Below, piece by piece: positions 1-32,243 of a stretch of DNA of 32,246 nt. Below the pieces are notes generated by a model. The model saw nothing but the letters and a program-made list of their open reading frames with translations, ran no database searches and was not told where the DNA came from. The DNA is from an uncultured Bacilli bacterium (GTDB taxonomy: Bacteria > Bacillota_I > Bacilli_A > RF39 > UBA660): NCBI GenBank assembly GCA_944363675.1, contig CALVUT010000070.1, positions 1 to 32,246 of the forward strand, written 5' to 3'. Position 1 is the stretch's first letter. The number at the start of each line of letters is the position of its first letter. Made by a program: the position numbers and the translations under genes.

Positions 1-666
1 AAAAAAAGAAGAACCAGAGAAGAATCTCTGATTCGGGTTCATCGGACTTATAAGGATTACTTAGCTTACTTAGAAGCCCATAAAGACGAAGATATATCTA
101 TTGTTCAAATGGATACTGTTGAAGGTACCAAAGGTGGTAAAGTTCTTTTAACTTTACTCCTAGTTCAATACAATCTCATGTTAACATTTATCATGGACTC
201 CCAAACCACTGCTTGTGTTAACAAGGTTTTTGATTGGATTCGATCTACCATTGGAATGAACAATTTTAAAAAATTTTTTCAAGTTGTCCTTACAGATAAC
301 GGTCATGAATTCTTTGAGCCACTTTCCATTGAACTGGATCCTATCACTAAAGAACAAGTCTCCCATGTGTTCTATTGTGATCCTTCTGCTTCTTATCAAA
401 AAGGGGCCATCGAAAAAAATCATGAATACATCCGTTATGTTTTACCTAAAGGTTCTTCTTTTGACTCTCTTACTCAAGAAGATTGTAACCTTCTTATGAG
501 TCATATTAACTCTGTACCTAGACAATCGCTTCGTAACAATACTCCTTATTTAGAAGTTCAACATTTTATTGATGAAGAATTACTAAACAAGTTAGGGGTC
601 TTTCTTATTCTTCCTGATGAAGTATCCTTGTCTCCTGAATTACTTAAGAAAAAAGACAAACAATAA
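1..666 (+). CDS. IS30-family transposase, 5' end beyond the window
   Basis: The reading frame is open from base 1 to a TAA at 664-666, so only the C-terminal ~221 residues are present. They carry the DDE integrase core of IS30-type transposases: the first Asp in IVQMDTVEG (bases ~100-123), the second in LTDNGHEFF (~288-315), and the Glu in the QKGAIEKNHEYIR helix (~399-432). This enzyme would cut and join the ends of its own insertion sequence. The frame looks intact where visible. The internal ATG at 109 is not the start, because conserved sequence (K-D-E-D-I-S-I-V-Q) precedes it without a break. The gene points toward the 3' end of the aldehyde dehydrogenase gene. Seen: frame and DDE motifs; known: IS30 family layout; inferred: a full element extending to the left. 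Confidence 0.9.
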   Translation, partial: KKRRTREESLIRVHRTYKDYLAYLEAHKDEDISIVQMDTVEGTKGGKVLLTLLLVQYNLMLTFIMDSQTTACVNKVFDWIRSTIGMNNFKKFFQVVLTDNGHEFFEPLSIELDPITKEQVSHVFYCDPSASYQKGAIEKNHEYIRYVLPKGSSFDSLTQEDCNLLMSHINSVPRQSLRNNTPYLEVQHFIDEELLNKLGVFLILPDEVSLSPELLKKKDKQ

Positions 667-8192: not shown

Positions 8193-9839
8193 TTAATTTT
8201 TTAAAAGGGCAATACGCCTAGTTATTTCTTCTTGGCCAATAATTTTCATAATGTCATACAAATTTGGGGTTCTTGATCTGCCTGTTAAAGCTACTCTTAA
8301 CACTGTTGAAACATCGGCAACGTTGCCTTTATAATTGTCCGGATTCTTTTTATACTCTTTCATATTGGAAGCATACCCTAATTTATCACACATTTCTTTC
8401 ATTTTGTTAAACCAAACTTCTTCGGTATCCGAAGAGTCATAGTAATTTTCAATGTAAGTTGTTAAAATTTCTACGATTTCTTTTTTATCCGTAATTCTTT
8501 GCCATTCATATTCCGGATTTTCAAAGTGATACATGTATTTTATATTGGATTCGATTTCACTATACATTCCATAATCTTTACGTGGTTTGGCTACATTTCT
8601 TTCAATGTTTAGGGTTGCAATAATTATGTCTTTATATGTCTTTAAATCTTCTATAAAGTCTTTTGAATAGGTTTCTGCCCATTGTAATATTTGATTATAA
8701 AATTCTTCAGCGCTAATACGGCTTAAGTAATTACGAGAAATATTAAGGAGTTTTTCCATATCAAATAGGGCTCCACTAGTGCTCATATTTTCAAAATGAA
8801 GTTCAAATTCATCCATATCTGAATCCGGATTGGCTAAGAACCACTCTTCAAAGTTAGAATTGGCTAAAGTCATTAAATAGATTTTTACCGCTTCAACAGG
8901 AATTCCTTTTTCACTGTAAAATCTCACATTAGCTTCTGGATCTTTACGCTTACTGATTTTTCTTTTCTTGCCGTCTTCTTCTTTTTGAATCGTTGCTAAA
9001 TGGGCATATTTTGGCGGTTCAAAACCTAGGGCATGGAATAGTTCGATATGCAAAGGCAAGCTACTTACCCATTCATCGCCACGAGTGACGTGTGTTGTCC
9101 CCATTAAGGTATCATCAACCGCATGCGCAAAATGATACGTTGGGATGCCATCGCTTTTTAATAAAACATGATCCATATCATTTTCTGGAAACTCAATTTT
9201 TCCTTTGATGCAATCTTCGATGACGATTTTGTTATCAAAAGATCCTTTGCTTTTCAAGCGAATAACATAAGGAATACCAGCCTCTACTTTTTCTTTTACT
9301 TCCTCCATGGTTAAGGCTCTTTCTTTACTTGCCCAAATACCATAGTAACCTATTCTCTGTTTTCTTTTTTGCTGTTTTTCAGTCATTTCTTTTTTTTCTT
9401 CTTCCGTTAAGAAAGAGGGATAAGCTAAATCTTTGATGATTAAGTCTTTGGCAAAGGCTTGATAAATATCGGCTCTTTTGCTCTGAATATATGGACCGTA
9501 TGCTCCGACTTCGCGCTCCATATCTATTGGGTATTCATCAAACGGTATTTGATAAGCTTTCACAGCTTCAAGTATTTGTTCAATACCATTTTCTACAAGA
9601 CGTTTTTGATCGGTATCTTCAATTCTTAAGAAACATACCCCTCCAGATTGTTTGGCTAATTTATTGGCTACGATTGCTTGATAAAGGGTCCCAATATGGA
9701 CAAATCCAGTTGGACTTGGAGCAATTCTAGTCACCATAGCGCCTGGTTTTAAATTTCTTTTTTGGTATTTTTCTTCATAGTACTTTCTGTCATGTAATAC
9801 ATTTGGTAACAGCATATTTGCATATTCTTCTCTTGTCAT
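8193..9839 (-). CDS. gltX: Glutamyl-tRNA synthetase
   Basis: A class I aminoacyl-tRNA synthetase of 548 residues that charges tRNA-Glu (and possibly tRNA-Gln in organisms that use GatCAB). The HIGH motif is PSPTGFVHIG (residues 41-50) and the KMSKS equivalent is KISKRKDP (KRKISKRKDPEANV). At ~548 residues it is longer than the ~480 of Bacillus GltX and resembles the longer type found in many clostridia and gut Firmicutes, with an enlarged C-terminal anticodon-binding region. The start is set at the ATG at 9839, preceded by AAGAAGGAA; an in-frame TTG 21 nt upstream would overlap that site. A T-box leader precedes it, and murF follows. Confidence 0.95.
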   Translation of the reverse strand: MTREEYANMLLPNVLHDRKYYEEKYQKRNLKPGAMVTRIAPSPTGFVHIGTLYQAIVANKLAKQSGGVCFLRIEDTDQKRLVENGIEQILEAVKAYQIPFDEYPIDMEREVGAYGPYIQSKRADIYQAFAKDLIIKDLAYPSFLTEEEKKEMTEKQQKRKQRIGYYGIWASKERALTMEEVKEKVEAGIPYVIRLKSKGSFDNKIVIEDCIKGKIEFPENDMDHVLLKSDGIPTYHFAHAVDDTLMGTTHVTRGDEWVSSLPLHIELFHALGFEPPKYAHLATIQKEEDGKKRKISKRKDPEANVRFYSEKGIPVEAVKIYLMTLANSNFEEWFLANPDSDMDEFELHFENMSTSGALFDMEKLLNISRNYLSRISAEEFYNQILQWAETYSKDFIEDLKTYKDIIIATLNIERNVAKPRKDYGMYSEIESNIKYMYHFENPEYEWQRITDKKEIVEILTTYIENYYDSSDTEEVWFNKMKEMCDKLGYASNMKEYKKNPDNYKGNVADVSTVLRVALTGRSRTPNLYDIMKIIGQEEITRRIALLKN

Positions 9840-9861
9840 AAATATTCCTTCTTTCCACAAA

Positions 9862-10066
9862 AAAAGTGGTCACGAGCAAGGGCGAATTCTTGGAATCGCG
9901 GTACCACCTTTATTTTTTCTCTTTTTGATAACGGGCATGCCCGGATTACCTTAATTACAGTAATCACTCCAAAGCTTCTTTCAAAATACTTCTTTATCTA
10001 TTTCCACCAACCATAGACTCTCTTTGAAAAGCAGGTATTTTTACTCTTCTTTTTCTTCGTTTTCTG
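9862..10066 (-). promoter_or_regulatory. T-box riboswitch leader of gltX-murF
   Basis: The leader contains the conserved T-box core GGTGGTACCGCG (minus strand, 9908-9897) that binds the free CCA end of uncharged tRNA. Stem I features are also visible, including the distal segment GGTTGGTGGAAATAG (~10012-9998). GTGGT (start of the T-box core, ~9907-9903) can pair with ACCAC (9870-9866), which is followed by a T-run (to ~9860), giving a terminator that competes with the antiterminator. GAA at 9982-9980, following GTATTTT, is a candidate Glu specifier codon, but stem I was not folded, so this is tentative. The expected effect is that uncharged tRNA-Glu lets transcription continue into gltX. Confidence 0.9.
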
Positions 10067-29500: not shown

Positions 29501-29890
29501 CTACAACGTTTTCTCACCATGTAATTTTTTTTGGATTTGTTCTAGAGTATTTAAAGCTTCCATTGGAGTCATTTTATATATTTTTAAATGTTTTAAGGTT
29601 TCGATAACTTCTTTTTCATAATTTTTCTCGTGTGTTTCTTCTTTTTCTTCGATTACTTCAACGGATAGGTGGTAATTTTCAAATTGATTTCTATATTTTT
29701 CTAAACTGTTTTTAGGAAAGCCGCATTTTTCTACTCCTTTAGCAAATGGAGTTCTTTTCCAAGCAAAAATCTCACTCATTTTTACGGCGTCGGCTTCTAA
29801 AAAAATATAAAAGTTGCCACAGGCGAACAAATAGAATTTATTTTTATCCTCCATTTTTAATTTTAAATATTTTTCATAGAGTTTACGCAT
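29501..29890 (-). CDS. Small protein with MutS domain I and a MutS-like C-terminal motif
   Basis: A 129-residue protein resembling only the mismatch-recognition domain of MutS: YEKYLKLKMEDKNKFYLFACGNFYIFLEADAVKMSE (~5-40) corresponds to the MutS beginning, and KGVEKCGFPKNSLEKYRNQF (51-70) to its PMCGVP region. The Phe-x-Glu wedge motif of MutS (GDFYE) reads GNFYI here, so Glu is missing. The last part (residues 107-123, MTPMEALNTLEQIQKKL) resembles the extreme C-terminus of full MutS. The ATPase and clamp domains are absent. AAAGGA precedes the ATG by 10 nt. It could be a regulatory or phage-derived relative or an internally deleted mutS; the intact frame favours a real gene. Confidence 0.7.
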   Translation of the reverse strand: MRKLYEKYLKLKMEDKNKFYLFACGNFYIFLEADAVKMSEIFAWKRTPFAKGVEKCGFPKNSLEKYRNQFENYHLSVEVIEEKEETHEKNYEKEVIETLKHLKIYKMTPMEALNTLEQIQKKLHGEKTL

Positions 29891-29980: not shown

Positions 29981-31003
29981 CTATTTAAAAATACTAAATA
30001 ATTTTCCACCTTTTTCACTATTGTTTGTATCTAATCTTGTGAACCCCATTTTGATTAATAAATCTTCTAGAACACGATGTTCGTCTAATTTATCATCTAG
30101 GTATGGAATATTGTAATAAACTTTACTTCGTGATTCGTATTCAAAATCAGCAACATCACTATTATTTAAGACACTTCGATTTAAAATGATTTTTTCTCCT
30201 TTTAATTTTTCAAAGGCTTGATGATCCTTACGAATTAATTTATTCAATTTGATTAACCCAGGTTCAATTAAATATAACACCTCTGTACAGTTTTTTACTG
30301 ATCCTTGACGATTTAGATCAACTAAGATAACATCGGCTTCACGATGTGTAGCGATAAAACTTGGTAATTCCGTATTATTGGTATGTTTTAACGTTTTATC
30401 ATTTAAATACATAAAATCGTTTTCATCTACTTCAACAGCAACCACTTTGTATTTCTTTTCTAATTGCTTTTTTAGTAAGTACGTTAATGTGGTACTACCG
30501 GCATGATCTGTCACATTTTTAATTCCAATTACTCTTAATTCAGGACGACTCATTAAAGGAGCACTTGCCATTGACGATTCGCTACTGTCGGTATTTACTG
30601 GAGTTTGATAACTCATCATGTTATTTAGTTGATGATATTGAGCCACATCTTTGTAACTATTTGGATTATCAATTAGAAATTTAATGGCATCAACATTTCT
30701 TGTAAAATTGTAAATTCCCATGGATACTAATTGGGATAAATATCGTGGACTATTTACGGTTTCTGAATCATCTAATAAAAGAATAACTTTACTCATATCC
30801 ATGTTTACAGACAATTCTTGGATTTTGGTAATATCTTGATAATCTTTTATTGCGGTGATATCTAGAATCATTTTATTATAAAAGAAATTATTAAATTGCA
30901 TGATAATTTCTTCAGGTGTGAAAACTCCCTCCACACTTTTAATAAAATCGATGTCTAAATTAGCTAAAAGAGCTGAATATTTATTGGTAATTTTGACATT
31001 CAT
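29981..31003 (-). CDS. TadZ/CpaE-like protein (receiver-like domain plus degenerate ATPase)
   Basis: A 340-residue protein with a receiver-like N-terminal half (~1-120; KVILLLDDSE, then YLSQLVSMGIYNFTRNVDAIKFLID, typical of TadZ/CpaE receiver domains lacking phosphorylation residues), a Ser-rich linker (~135-150), and a MinD/ParA-like half. Its P-loop position reads KNVTDHAGSTT (162-172), which lacks the Lys of KGGxGK[ST], so ATP binding may be lost or altered; ADVILVDLNRQGS lies at the Walker B-like position. TadZ proteins place the Tad pilus machine at a cell pole. AAAAGGGG precedes the ATG by 8 nt. It follows two TadE-like genes, and the terminator follows it, making it the last gene of the visible operon. 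Confidence 0.65.
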   Translation of the reverse strand: MNVKITNKYSALLANLDIDFIKSVEGVFTPEEIIMQFNNFFYNKMILDITAIKDYQDITKIQELSVNMDMSKVILLLDDSETVNSPRYLSQLVSMGIYNFTRNVDAIKFLIDNPNSYKDVAQYHQLNNMMSYQTPVNTDSSESSMASAPLMSRPELRVIGIKNVTDHAGSTTLTYLLKKQLEKKYKVVAVEVDENDFMYLNDKTLKHTNNTELPSFIATHREADVILVDLNRQGSVKNCTEVLYLIEPGLIKLNKLIRKDHQAFEKLKGEKIILNRSVLNNSDVADFEYESRSKVYYNIPYLDDKLDEHRVLEDLLIKMGFTRLDTNNSEKGGKLFSIFK

Positions 31004-31019
31004 TCTTTATACCCCTTTT

Positions 31020-31502
31020 CTATGTATTTTGTATATCATATAAAGCATGAGAAAGATCAATTGTTGTACCCTCTACTGAGAAAGTAAATAAATCACCGAT
31101 TACTGGTAAACTAAAGTGGAAAAAAATGCGTATTCGATATCTCGCACGATCCGGCATAGCTGCGGTTGCAGTACTTTCTTTGCGCACACAGTAATAATAC
31201 TTTTTGTTATTTGTTGCTGGCTCTAAAGCGATACTTGTTAAACTCGTTGCACCATATTCATCTTCTTCACATTTTCCTTGTACAGAATAATTGTTATAAG
31301 TTAAATAATTGTTTATTATTGTCACGGCACCAGTTTCTTCACCTAAACCTATTCCCTCATACTTTTCAATCATACTTACTAATTCATTTTTTGTTTTAAA
31401 AGCTCGCGTATAATTAATTGTTAATGAGATAAATGCCACAAAAATTAAAGTAAAAATAATGACTAATTGCATTATCCATGTACTACCTATTGACTGTCTC
31501 AT
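31020..31502 (-). CDS. TadE-like membrane-anchored protein, paralogue 2
   Basis: A 160-residue protein with an N-terminal membrane helix (~10-30, WIMQLVIIFTLIFVAFISLTIN) followed by an outer domain with Cys79 and Cys104 (KCEEDEY, YYYCVRK), which might form a disulphide, and a hydrophobic C-terminal segment (RIRIFFHFSLPVIGDLFTFSVEG). The arrangement and the ending match its upstream neighbour. The type fits small TadE/pseudopilin-like proteins, by layout rather than by a confirmed motif. ATG overlaps the neighbour's TGA (ATGA), so the pair is translationally coupled. Confidence 0.5.
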   Translation of the reverse strand: MRQSIGSTWIMQLVIIFTLIFVAFISLTINYTRAFKTKNELVSMIEKYEGIGLGEETGAVTIINNYLTYNNYSVQGKCEEDEYGATSLTSIALEPATNNKKYYYCVRKESTATAAMPDRARYRIRIFFHFSLPVIGDLFTFSVEGTTIDLSHALYDIQNT

Positions 31503-31996
31503 AATACATCACCATATAATATTTTTGTATCGCCCACTACTTTAAAATTAAAAAGTTCATGGAATACTGGAAGATCTAATTGATAAAATACAACTACATG
31601 ATAGTAATACATATCTGGCAGTTCATTATAAGATGATGAACTTTCTGCATCTTGAACAGCATTTACCCTTGCTATACAGAAGACAGGGTTTGACGATACT
31701 TGTTTTCCATCGCGGGAATAGCATACATAGTTATCGTGATCGTTAGGAACTTCGCCTGTTGTACGGTAGGAGTTCGCTGTGATGTAACTTACTATATCGG
31801 CAAGAGGTCCTATGTCGCCATCTTCATAATTTTGATTCAAATTCATACCATTGTAACTTTGAATCGTTTGAATAATTTGATTTTTTACATTGAATGCTTT
31901 GGAACGATTAATAGACAAACACATAAAACCGGTAAATAATAGAATAAAGATTATTACAATTTGGAACAACCAGGTTCCACCTATAGCTTCTCTCAT
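31499..31996 (-). CDS. TadE-like membrane-anchored protein, paralogue 1
   Basis: A 165-residue protein with an N-terminal membrane helix (~9-29, LFQIVIIFILLFTGFMCLSIN), a conserved N-terminal motif shared with its paralogue (MR-x-x-IG-x-TW; N-x-x-x-AF-x-x-KN), Cys101 and Cys117 in the outer domain, and a matching C-terminal part (YYHVVVFYQLDLPVFHELFNFKVVG). It is a clear duplicate of the following gene. It lies 4 nt after the pilin-like gene. Function is inferred from the operon: surface or pilus component. Confidence 0.5.
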   Translation of the reverse strand: MREAIGGTWLFQIVIIFILLFTGFMCLSINRSKAFNVKNQIIQTIQSYNGMNLNQNYEDGDIGPLADIVSYITANSYRTTGEVPNDHDNYVCYSRDGKQVSSNPVFCIARVNAVQDAESSSSYNELPDMYYYHVVVFYQLDLPVFHELFNFKVVGDTKILYGDVL

Positions 31997-32000
31997 TTAA

Positions 32001-32243
32001 TTACCCCTTCCATGCGCATGTAAATGTATCTGATTTTTGACCATCTTCATAAATATAACACTCGACGGTTCGACCATCAGCACTTCTATTTTCAATTGGA
32101 CAAATTGCTTTGTTACATGCAGTTGTAGCATTCATGTTATTGTTAATGGTTGGCCAGATAGTGAAATAGAAAAAAGCCACCAGCAGTGCCACGATAATTA
32201 CAACAATAACAGTAGCATTTAATTCACCAGTCGCTTCTTTCAT
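32001..32243 (-). CDS. Small pilin-like membrane protein
   Basis: An 80-residue protein with a short N-terminal segment, one long membrane helix (~11-31, TVIVVIIVALLVAFFYFTIW) and an outer part with four Cys (Cys43, Cys48, Cys61, Cys76), possibly two disulphides. Size and layout resemble Flp pilins or small pseudopilins, although the classic prepilin cleavage site is not clear. The ATG at 32243 is 3 nt from the window edge, so its ribosome binding site and any operon start lie outside. Confidence 0.45.
   Translation of the reverse strand: MKEATGELNATVIVVIIVALLVAFFYFTIWPTINNNMNATTACNKAICPIENRSADGRTVECYIYEDGQKSDTFTCAWKG

What the first reader, a model, noticed from the sequence alone, without database searches (positions are those of the whole stretch)
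29981..32243. Compact Tad/Flp-like surface locus with a degenerate TadZ-like protein
A pilin-like protein, two duplicated TadE-like proteins and a receiver/ParA-like protein whose P-loop lacks the usual Lys form a tight operon that continues beyond the right edge. The TadE-like pair and cysteine patterns differ from well-studied Tad systems. This may be a divergent pilus or secretion apparatus in a spore-former.
Basis: partly seen in the sequence, partly recalled or inferred. Interest (0 to 1): 0.5.

Follow-up and report, generated by a model that had tools for sequence, protein, structure and literature searches.

The report
Pilus-linked secretion machine in gut Bacilli
The four genes are one end of a chromosomal gene set, shared by a family of uncultured gut bacteria, that joins a Tad-type pilus assembly unit to a conjugation-type secretion channel; such a pairing has hardly been described in Gram-positive bacteria.

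Summary
Window 29981-32243 (minus strand) encodes a pilin-like protein, two paralogous TadE-like proteins (31% identical) and a TadZ/ParA-like protein without the P-loop lysine, in a tight operon cut by the contig end. In relatives it continues upstream with TadC, TadB, a CpaF/VirB11-type ATPase, CpaB/RcpC, DUF5411 and a large Cys-rich secreted protein: the ATPase is upstream on the same contig in 21 of 28 loci; the other seven contigs end first. The unexpected part lies downstream. In 20 of 24 family genomes with both genes on one contig, a type IV secretion VirB4 follows TadZ by 3-9 kb on the same strand, and loci read out further add VirB2-like, VirB6, VirB3, wall-hydrolase and VirD4 genes. 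In the window's genome these parts lie on other contigs, and the motor genes are not assembled. I found no relaxase in the gene set (not every ORF or relaxase family was tested), chromosomal genes flank it, it is under purifying selection, and its distances track SpoIVA. Best reading: a domesticated Tad-plus-type-IV-secretion machine, distantly related to conjugation systems of Bacillus plasmids, for contact-dependent transfer. Substrate unknown. New variant of a known kind.

The parts
32001..32243 (-). pilin-like protein, 80 aa: leader MKEATGE, one hydrophobic helix, Cys-containing outer part; first complete gene before the contig end
   Evidence: dN/dS 0.065 against L030; no significant Pfam or NCBIfam match
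31499..31996 (-). TadE-like protein 1, 165 aa
   Evidence: dN/dS 0.039; no Pfam or NCBIfam match
31020..31502 (-). TadE-like protein 2, 160 aa, paralogue of the first (31% identity)
   Evidence: dN/dS 0.049; no Pfam or NCBIfam match
29981..31003 (-). TadZ-like protein, 340 aa: N-terminal domain plus ParA/MinD-fold domain with a P-loop that lacks the lysine
   Evidence: dN/dS 0.038

Best explanation
The window holds the 3' part of a Tad-type module that belongs to a chromosomally fixed type IV secretion system. Shown: gene content, order, conservation and relatedness, mostly in relatives. Inferred: the mechanism. The CpaF/VirB11-type ATPase with the TadB/TadC platform assembles a filament of MKEATGE pilins and TadE/DUF5411 pseudopilins. 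CpaB/RcpC proteins and the large Cys-rich secreted protein form its outer, contact-making part. The TadZ-like protein, which has lost the P-loop lysine, is a positioning scaffold rather than a motor. VirB4, VirB3, VirB6 and the VirB2-like proteins form the membrane channel, a wall hydrolase opens the peptidoglycan, and VirD4 recruits substrates. With no relaxase found in the gene set and fixed chromosomal inheritance, the likeliest task is contact-dependent transfer of proteins (less likely DNA) to neighbouring cells.
For: Upstream motor and platform in relatives. VirB4 3.4-8.9 kb downstream of TadZ on the same strand in 20 of 24 genomes with both on one contig. Complete sets in 5 of 10 genomes read out. 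Both genes in 41 of 54 family genomes and in none of 341 others of the class (Fisher p = 0.003 within the family). T4SS parts in the window's own genome on C82 and C3. VirB4 and VirD4 over their Pfam cut-offs. TadB has the T2SSF fold (seven rows Z 7.5-10.1, next row 4.8). The ATPase has an intact Walker A. Purifying selection; distances of TadZ, VirB4, VirD4 and SpoIVA correlate, rho 0.74-0.86. No relaxase among nine unassigned ORFs.
Against: In the window's own genus the two halves are apart. In 8 of 54 family genomes only one half was found: TadZ alone 3, VirB4 alone 5. Four genomes have both on one contig but 33-49 kb apart. The motor genes are not in the window's own assembly. VirB2, VirB3 and VirB6 assignments are below Pfam cut-offs. 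TadE and pilins have no family match. No substrate was found or searched for. Stops were flagged in 4 of 44 TadZ and 4 of 29 VirD4 matches. Drafts are incomplete, and Fisher's test ignores relatedness.
Confidence: 0.6

Rival explanations
1. The conjugation machinery of an integrated element, or a remnant of one, that still moves DNA, perhaps in trans for other elements.
For: Related modules sit on predicted conjugative plasmids. VirD4 and VirB4 are kept. PF03432 relaxases occur in 16 of 58 family genomes, 11 over the cut-off.
Against: No relaxase among nine unassigned ORFs of the gene sets (three further ORFs of G124 not tested). G131 has the full set and no PF03432 match; the window genome's only match is on C40, in an element with its own VirB4 and VirD4. 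Chromosomal neighbours, slow VirB4 evolution and distances that track SpoIVA. Other relaxase families were not searched genome-wide.
Confidence: 0.18
2. An ordinary, if divergent, Tad/Flp adhesion pilus; the secretion genes nearby are an unrelated neighbour.
For: TadZ, TadB, ATPase and RcpC-type proteins are present. Three genomes have TadZ without the VirB4.
Against: Same-strand adjacency in 20 of 24 genomes, with either half of the T4SS set next to TadZ in different lineages. Pilins lack the usual prepilin site. A canonical Tad locus already exists in the genome. The ATPase family scores plasmid ATPases above the genome's own Tad ATPase.
Confidence: 0.13
3. A DNA-uptake (competence) machine built from Tad and T4SS parts.
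For: A Flp pilus serves transformation in an actinobacterium (PMC4322843, title and abstract start; that it is Micrococcus luteus is recalled). H. pylori ComB is a T4SS (PMC12857230 passage).
Against: VirD4 is present, whereas the review says ComB lacks it. comEC and other competence genes were not searched here.
Confidence: 0.06
4. A sporulation-linked channel: spoIVA lies near the window operon and genes read as ylbJ, sepM and sigG lie near the VirB part.
For: Neighbours in the window and in 5 of 8 genus loci with long flanks (the three names are recalled).
Against: Other genera and other species of the genus have other neighbours.
Confidence: 0.03

Closest known systems
Tad-like module on the Priestia koreensis FS-1 plasmid (NZ_CP061869.1) and, more distantly, conjugation operons of Bacillus natto / pLS20-type and Virgibacillus plasmids
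   Same: Order adhesin, DUF5411, SAF/CpaB, CpaF/VirB11, T2SSF (TadB), TadC-like; HHalign 96% TadB, 97% TadC, 90% DUF5411 for Priestia, 86% VirB6 (78 columns) for natto. Natto and Virgibacillus plasmids carry VirD4, VirB6-type and DUF5592 genes next to it.
   Different: Plasmid-borne, with relaxases typed. No TadZ-like match in the stretches compared. TadB of natto and Virgibacillus is only weakly related (E 0.0035 and 0.0004). The VirB4 there was not compared directly with the natto one.
Tad/Flp pilus
   Same: CpaF-type ATPase, T2SSF platform, RcpC/CpaB, TadZ with atypical Walker A
   Different: Pilins without the prepilin site, no peptidase in the locus, T4SS genes in the same operon
T4SS of Patescibacteria (Southlakia epibionticum)
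   Same: Chromosomal monoderm T4SS with several divergent VirB2-like proteins, VirB1/3/4/6 and VirD4 (PMC12857230 section 22); small genomes
   Different: There the T4P is a separate cluster as far as the review tells, and VirB8 is listed; here no VirB8 was identified. Homology of the VirB2-like proteins is only suggested by sub-threshold PF18895 scores.
IncI (R64) plasmids and the PapI-1 island
   Same: A type IV pilus works together with a T4SS, or with VirB4 and VirD4 (PMC12857230 section 21 part 1)
   Different: Gram-negative mobile elements with another pilus type

Membership tests
Tad/Flp pilus | CpaF/TadA ATPase in the locus | tested here: met
   In relatives only: 21 of 28 loci; T2SSE 96 bits (cut-off 24.9), Walker A intact. 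Scores alike against VirB11 and CpaF structures. Not assembled in the window genome.
Tad/Flp pilus | TadB/TadC platform (T2SSF fold) | tested here: met
   TadB by fold: OutF Z 10.1 (rmsd 2.7, 107 residues), PilC Z 10.1, next unrelated row 4.8. TadC itself only by place and HHalign to a plasmid TadC-like protein. No Pfam match for either.
Tad/Flp pilus | Prepilin cleavage site, Gly followed by Glu at +5 | tested here: not met
   None of 61 pilin and 67 TadE ORFs with a readable leader has Glu at +5; 3 of 64 and 4 of 71 had no readable leader. The genome's canonical Tad pilin has it (sequence).
Tad/Flp pilus | Prepilin peptidase | tested here: inconclusive
   One A24 peptidase in the genome, on C84, not in this locus.
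Tad/Flp pilus | TadZ-type protein with atypical Walker A | tested here: met
   ParA/MinD fold, no P-loop lysine; atypical Walker A described for TadZ (PMC6668835 passage).
Tad/Flp pilus | RcpC/CpaB | tested here: met
   L030 copy: PF16976 32.7 bits, cut-off 28.8. L055 copy just below, 28.1.
Type IV secretion system | VirB4 ATPase | tested here: met
   Window genome C82: PF19044 48.8 bits, cut-off 25.8. Best NCBIfam model NF045975 338.7 bits, below its cut-off of 590.
Type IV secretion system | VirD4 coupling protein | tested here: met
   Window genome C3: PF02534 186.7 bits, cut-off 20.1.
Type IV secretion system | VirB3, VirB6 and VirB2-type membrane proteins | tested here: inconclusive
   L055: PrgI E = 0.079, TrbL_4 E = 4e-4, T4SS_pilin E = 1.5e-5, all below cut-offs; VirB6 of the window genome without a Pfam match.
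Type IV secretion system | VirB1-like wall hydrolase | tested here: met
   M23 and phage lysozyme in L031, SpoIID in G262. Not identified in the window genome; the 960-aa ORF in this place in G124 was not tested.
Conjugative element (pLS20-type) | Relaxase in the same gene set | tested here: not met
   None among nine unassigned ORFs of G262, G131, G296, G423 and the window genome; PF03432 absent from G131. Other families were covered only in those nine ORFs.
Conjugative element (pLS20-type) | Carried on a mobile element | tested here: not met
   Flanked by chromosomal genes in ten genomes; distances track SpoIVA.
Patescibacteria-type T4SS | Array of divergent VirB2-like pilins | tested here: inconclusive
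   Four VirB2-like ORFs in the window genome by BLAST (29-38% class identities); PF18895 22.2 bits against a cut-off of 26.6.
Patescibacteria-type T4SS | Essential for a host-dependent life | not testable with these tools
   Needs culture and genetics.

The most novel reading that the evidence does not exclude
A whole family of small-genome gut Bacilli carries, as a fixed chromosomal organelle, a Gram-positive type IV secretion machine that has its own CpaF/VirB11-type motor and Tad platform, builds a contact filament without classical prepilins, and transfers proteins rather than plasmids into other cells, much as Patescibacteria are thought to use theirs.
Probability: 0.35. Interest if true: 0.85.

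Novelty: new variant of a known kind. Interest (0 to 1): 0.6.

Why it matters
[quoted passage not shown] passages; section 22; section 21 part 1). Here a CpaF/VirB11-type ATPase and Tad platform share an operon with VirB4 and VirD4, and TadZ and VirB4 occur together in 41 of 54 family genomes examined. Plasmid records show CpaF/VirB11-type ATPases and related platform genes on Gram-positive conjugative plasmids too, so the general statements look too strong already on public sequence. If the parts work together, a family-wide, non-mobile Gram-positive T4SS with a pilus motor becomes testable.

Tried and rejected
Simple Tad pilus: considered first; set aside when VirB4 and VirD4 appeared downstream in relatives.

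Linking the window to the Tad genes on C98: rejected, because that locus has its own pilin, TadE pair, canonical TadZ and ATPase, and relatives show a second motor beside the window's genes.

A VirB8 between hydrolase and VirD4: the ORFs there are too variable (17-37% identity to the first of seven) and the copies tested have no Pfam match that reaches its cut-off; no claim made.

TadB against the genome's own Tad1 TadB by HHalign: no match above 30% probability. The fold comparison settled it; Foldseek alone gave E = 1.6 for EpsF.

TadZ profile against PDB sequences: only a chance match (E = 0.41). TadZ fold rows cover residues 153-324 only, so the N-terminal half was not tested apart.

Sporulation role: treated as coincidence of place, see the rival.

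Relaxases: only PF03432 was searched genome-wide.

Papers: ten searches used, partly capped lists; none listed a paper that I recognised as describing a Tad module inside a Gram-positive T4SS. Passages only were seen of PMC8092201, PMC8014075 and PMC6668835; of PMC12857230 passages, section 22 and section 21 part 1. PMC5313138 and PMC10873654 had no hit for my terms. PMC8035907 is held only in part and its Ventrenecus entry was not seen, so the order RF39 for this genus is recalled.

Full report
The window is the whole contig C70 of a 1.34-Mb draft genome in 102 contigs, 92% complete. Records of the same genus are titled Candidatus Ventrenecus or uncultured Bacilli, from chicken, rabbit and ruminant samples (titles). 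On the minus strand at 29981-32243 lie four tightly packed ORFs: an 80-aa pilin-like protein, two TadE-like paralogues (31% identity), and a 340-aa protein whose residues 153-324 model as a ParA/MinD fold. The P-loop lysine is missing in 37 of 38 relatives by pattern, and in the 38th by its alignment row. Pfam and NCBIfam have no significant match for any of the four.

What lies beyond the edge. The window genome has only two T2SSE-type ATPase genes, on C14 and C98. C98 is a separate, canonical Tad locus with its own pilin, TadE pair, TadZ with GKGGVGKT, ATPase, TadB and TadC. In a sister genome whose TadZ is 95% identical (L030), the window's genes follow a large Cys-rich secreted protein, a DUF5411 protein, two CpaB-like proteins, an ATPase, TadB, TadC and a further pilin. 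Of 28 related loci, 21 have the ATPase upstream on the same contig; the other seven contigs end 1.3-6.1 kb upstream of TadZ without showing it. In some loci large ORFs stand between TadC and the pilins, and in one (L053) a minus-strand ORF stands at the contig end. So the motor of the window's operon is inferred from relatives, not seen in its own assembly, although the T2SSE search would have found it: the L030 copy scores 96 bits.

What lies downstream. In more distant relatives the TadZ gene is followed by genes of a type IV secretion system: VirB2-like proteins, VirB6, VirB3, VirB4 in two pieces, a wall hydrolase and VirD4, on one strand. Five of ten genomes read out carry the set (G262, G131, G124, G296, G423). 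In G124 a 960-aa ORF in the hydrolase place was not tested; in G262 and G131 no pilin was recognised between TadC and TadE. The other five (G165, G289, G152, G364, G323) show the Tad part followed by other chromosomal genes, four of them with one or two VirB2-like genes before or among these. In the window's genus the hydrolase and VirD4 follow TadZ in 6 of the 28 loci, while the VirB2-VirB4 part stands elsewhere, in 5 of 8 loci with long flanks beside genes that I read as ylbJ, sepM or sigG (names recalled). In the window the downstream neighbours are a stand-alone MutS domain I ORF and spoIVA, and the T4SS parts of its genome are on C82 (VirB2-like x4, VirB6, VirB3, VirB4) and C3 (VirD4).

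How often. The TadZ profile hits 44 of 395 class genomes, all among the 54 of the window's family. The matching VirB4 (over 900 bits) hits 46 of the same 395, again all in the family; the next best match is 355 bits. Both are in 41 genomes, TadZ alone in 3, VirB4 alone in 5, neither in 5 (Fisher p = 0.003; relatedness not corrected for). Of the 41, 24 have both on one contig, and in 20 of these VirB4 lies 3.4-8.9 kb downstream on the same strand; in the other four they are 33-49 kb apart. In the window's genus TadZ is in 26 of 35 genomes, a VirB4 of this type in 33 and VirD4 in 29, all drafts. Stops were flagged in 4 of 44 TadZ and 4 of 29 VirD4 matches.

Fixed, not mobile. Pairwise distances of TadZ, VirB4, VirD4 and SpoIVA correlate across 19-22 genus genomes (rho 0.74-0.86, none of 500 permutations as high), and VirB4 is more conserved than SpoIVA (mean distance 0.085 against 0.151). 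dN/dS against the sister genome is 0.02-0.07, with SpoIVA at 0.017 as the yardstick. No relaxase was found among nine unassigned ORFs. PF03432 relaxases are in 16 of 58 family genomes, not in G131, which has the full set. The window genome's one hit is on C40, in an element with its own VirB4 and VirD4. Other relaxase families were not searched genome-wide.

What the parts are. The ATPase scores alike against VirB11 and CpaF structures and has an intact Walker A. Its family profile scores Gram-positive plasmid ATPases at 170-206 bits and the genome's own Tad ATPase at 108. TadB has the T2SSF fold by model comparison. VirB4 and VirD4 of the window genome exceed their Pfam cut-offs; VirB2, VirB3 and VirB6 are sub-threshold calls supported by place. 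Pilins, TadE proteins and most DUF5411 proteins share a leader beginning M[KR][EQD], and the pilins lack the glutamate at +5 of the usual prepilin site. The locus should therefore not be filed as a Tad pilus proper, though its motor and platform look like one.

Relation to known systems. A Priestia koreensis plasmid carries adhesin, DUF5411, SAF, CpaF/VirB11, T2SSF and TadC-like genes in the same order, with HHalign probabilities of 90-97% for DUF5411, TadB and TadC. A Bacillus natto and a Virgibacillus plasmid carry a more distant version next to VirD4 and VirB6-type genes. The TadB-like protein of the natto type is on 141 plasmid records, 94 predicted conjugative, NC_015148.1 of Bacillus subtilis among them (that this record is pLS20 is recalled). 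Coupling of a Tad-like module with conjugation genes is thus not unique to this family. New here are the chromosomal, family-wide, apparently relaxase-free version, the TadZ-like protein, and the VirB2-like array. [quoted passage not shown] my ten paper searches listed none that I recognised as describing this arrangement.

How it may work. Shown: composition, order, conservation. Inferred: the ATPase and TadB/TadC build a filament that brings the cell into contact with a partner; TadZ places the machine; VirB proteins, hydrolase and VirD4 move a substrate. Without a relaxase in the gene set a protein substrate is the likeliest, but no effector was searched for or found. The joint gene set is well supported as a genetic unit in the family; its function is open.

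Noticed in passing
window 29501-29890 (-): A stand-alone MutS domain I ORF of 129 aa (PF01624, E = 1.5e-12), also in L030, between the operon and spoIVA.
   Followed up: no
L108 (G000:C82), L112, L113, L117: VirB2-like C-terminal domains joined to large, variable N-terminal parts, several per genome; one carries a weak Peptidase_C39_2 match.
   Followed up: partly
L004 (G000:C98): A second, canonical Tad locus in the same genome, cut at its 3' end by the contig end.
   Followed up: partly
L122 (G000:C40:1-20000): A separate element-like stretch with its own VirB4, hydrolase, PF03432 relaxase and VirD4.
   Followed up: partly
window 9875-10066 (-): T-box leader (120.4 bits) just upstream of the 555-aa ORF at 8193-9860, which I read as a class I lysyl-tRNA synthetase (recalled).
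   Followed up: no
L117 2004-2606; L121: T4SS genes scattered among housekeeping genes: an EngB-like GTPase inside a VirB2 array; VirB2-like genes beside a pyruvate kinase and near a YqgF-like gene (gene names recalled).
   Followed up: no
L156 5867-8182: The wall-hydrolase place in the gene set holds unrelated enzymes in different genera: SpoIID domain here, lysozyme plus M23 in L031.
   Followed up: partly
window 1-666 (+): Left contig end holds an integrase-core-like transposase fragment (my reading of the sequence; no family search).
   Followed up: no
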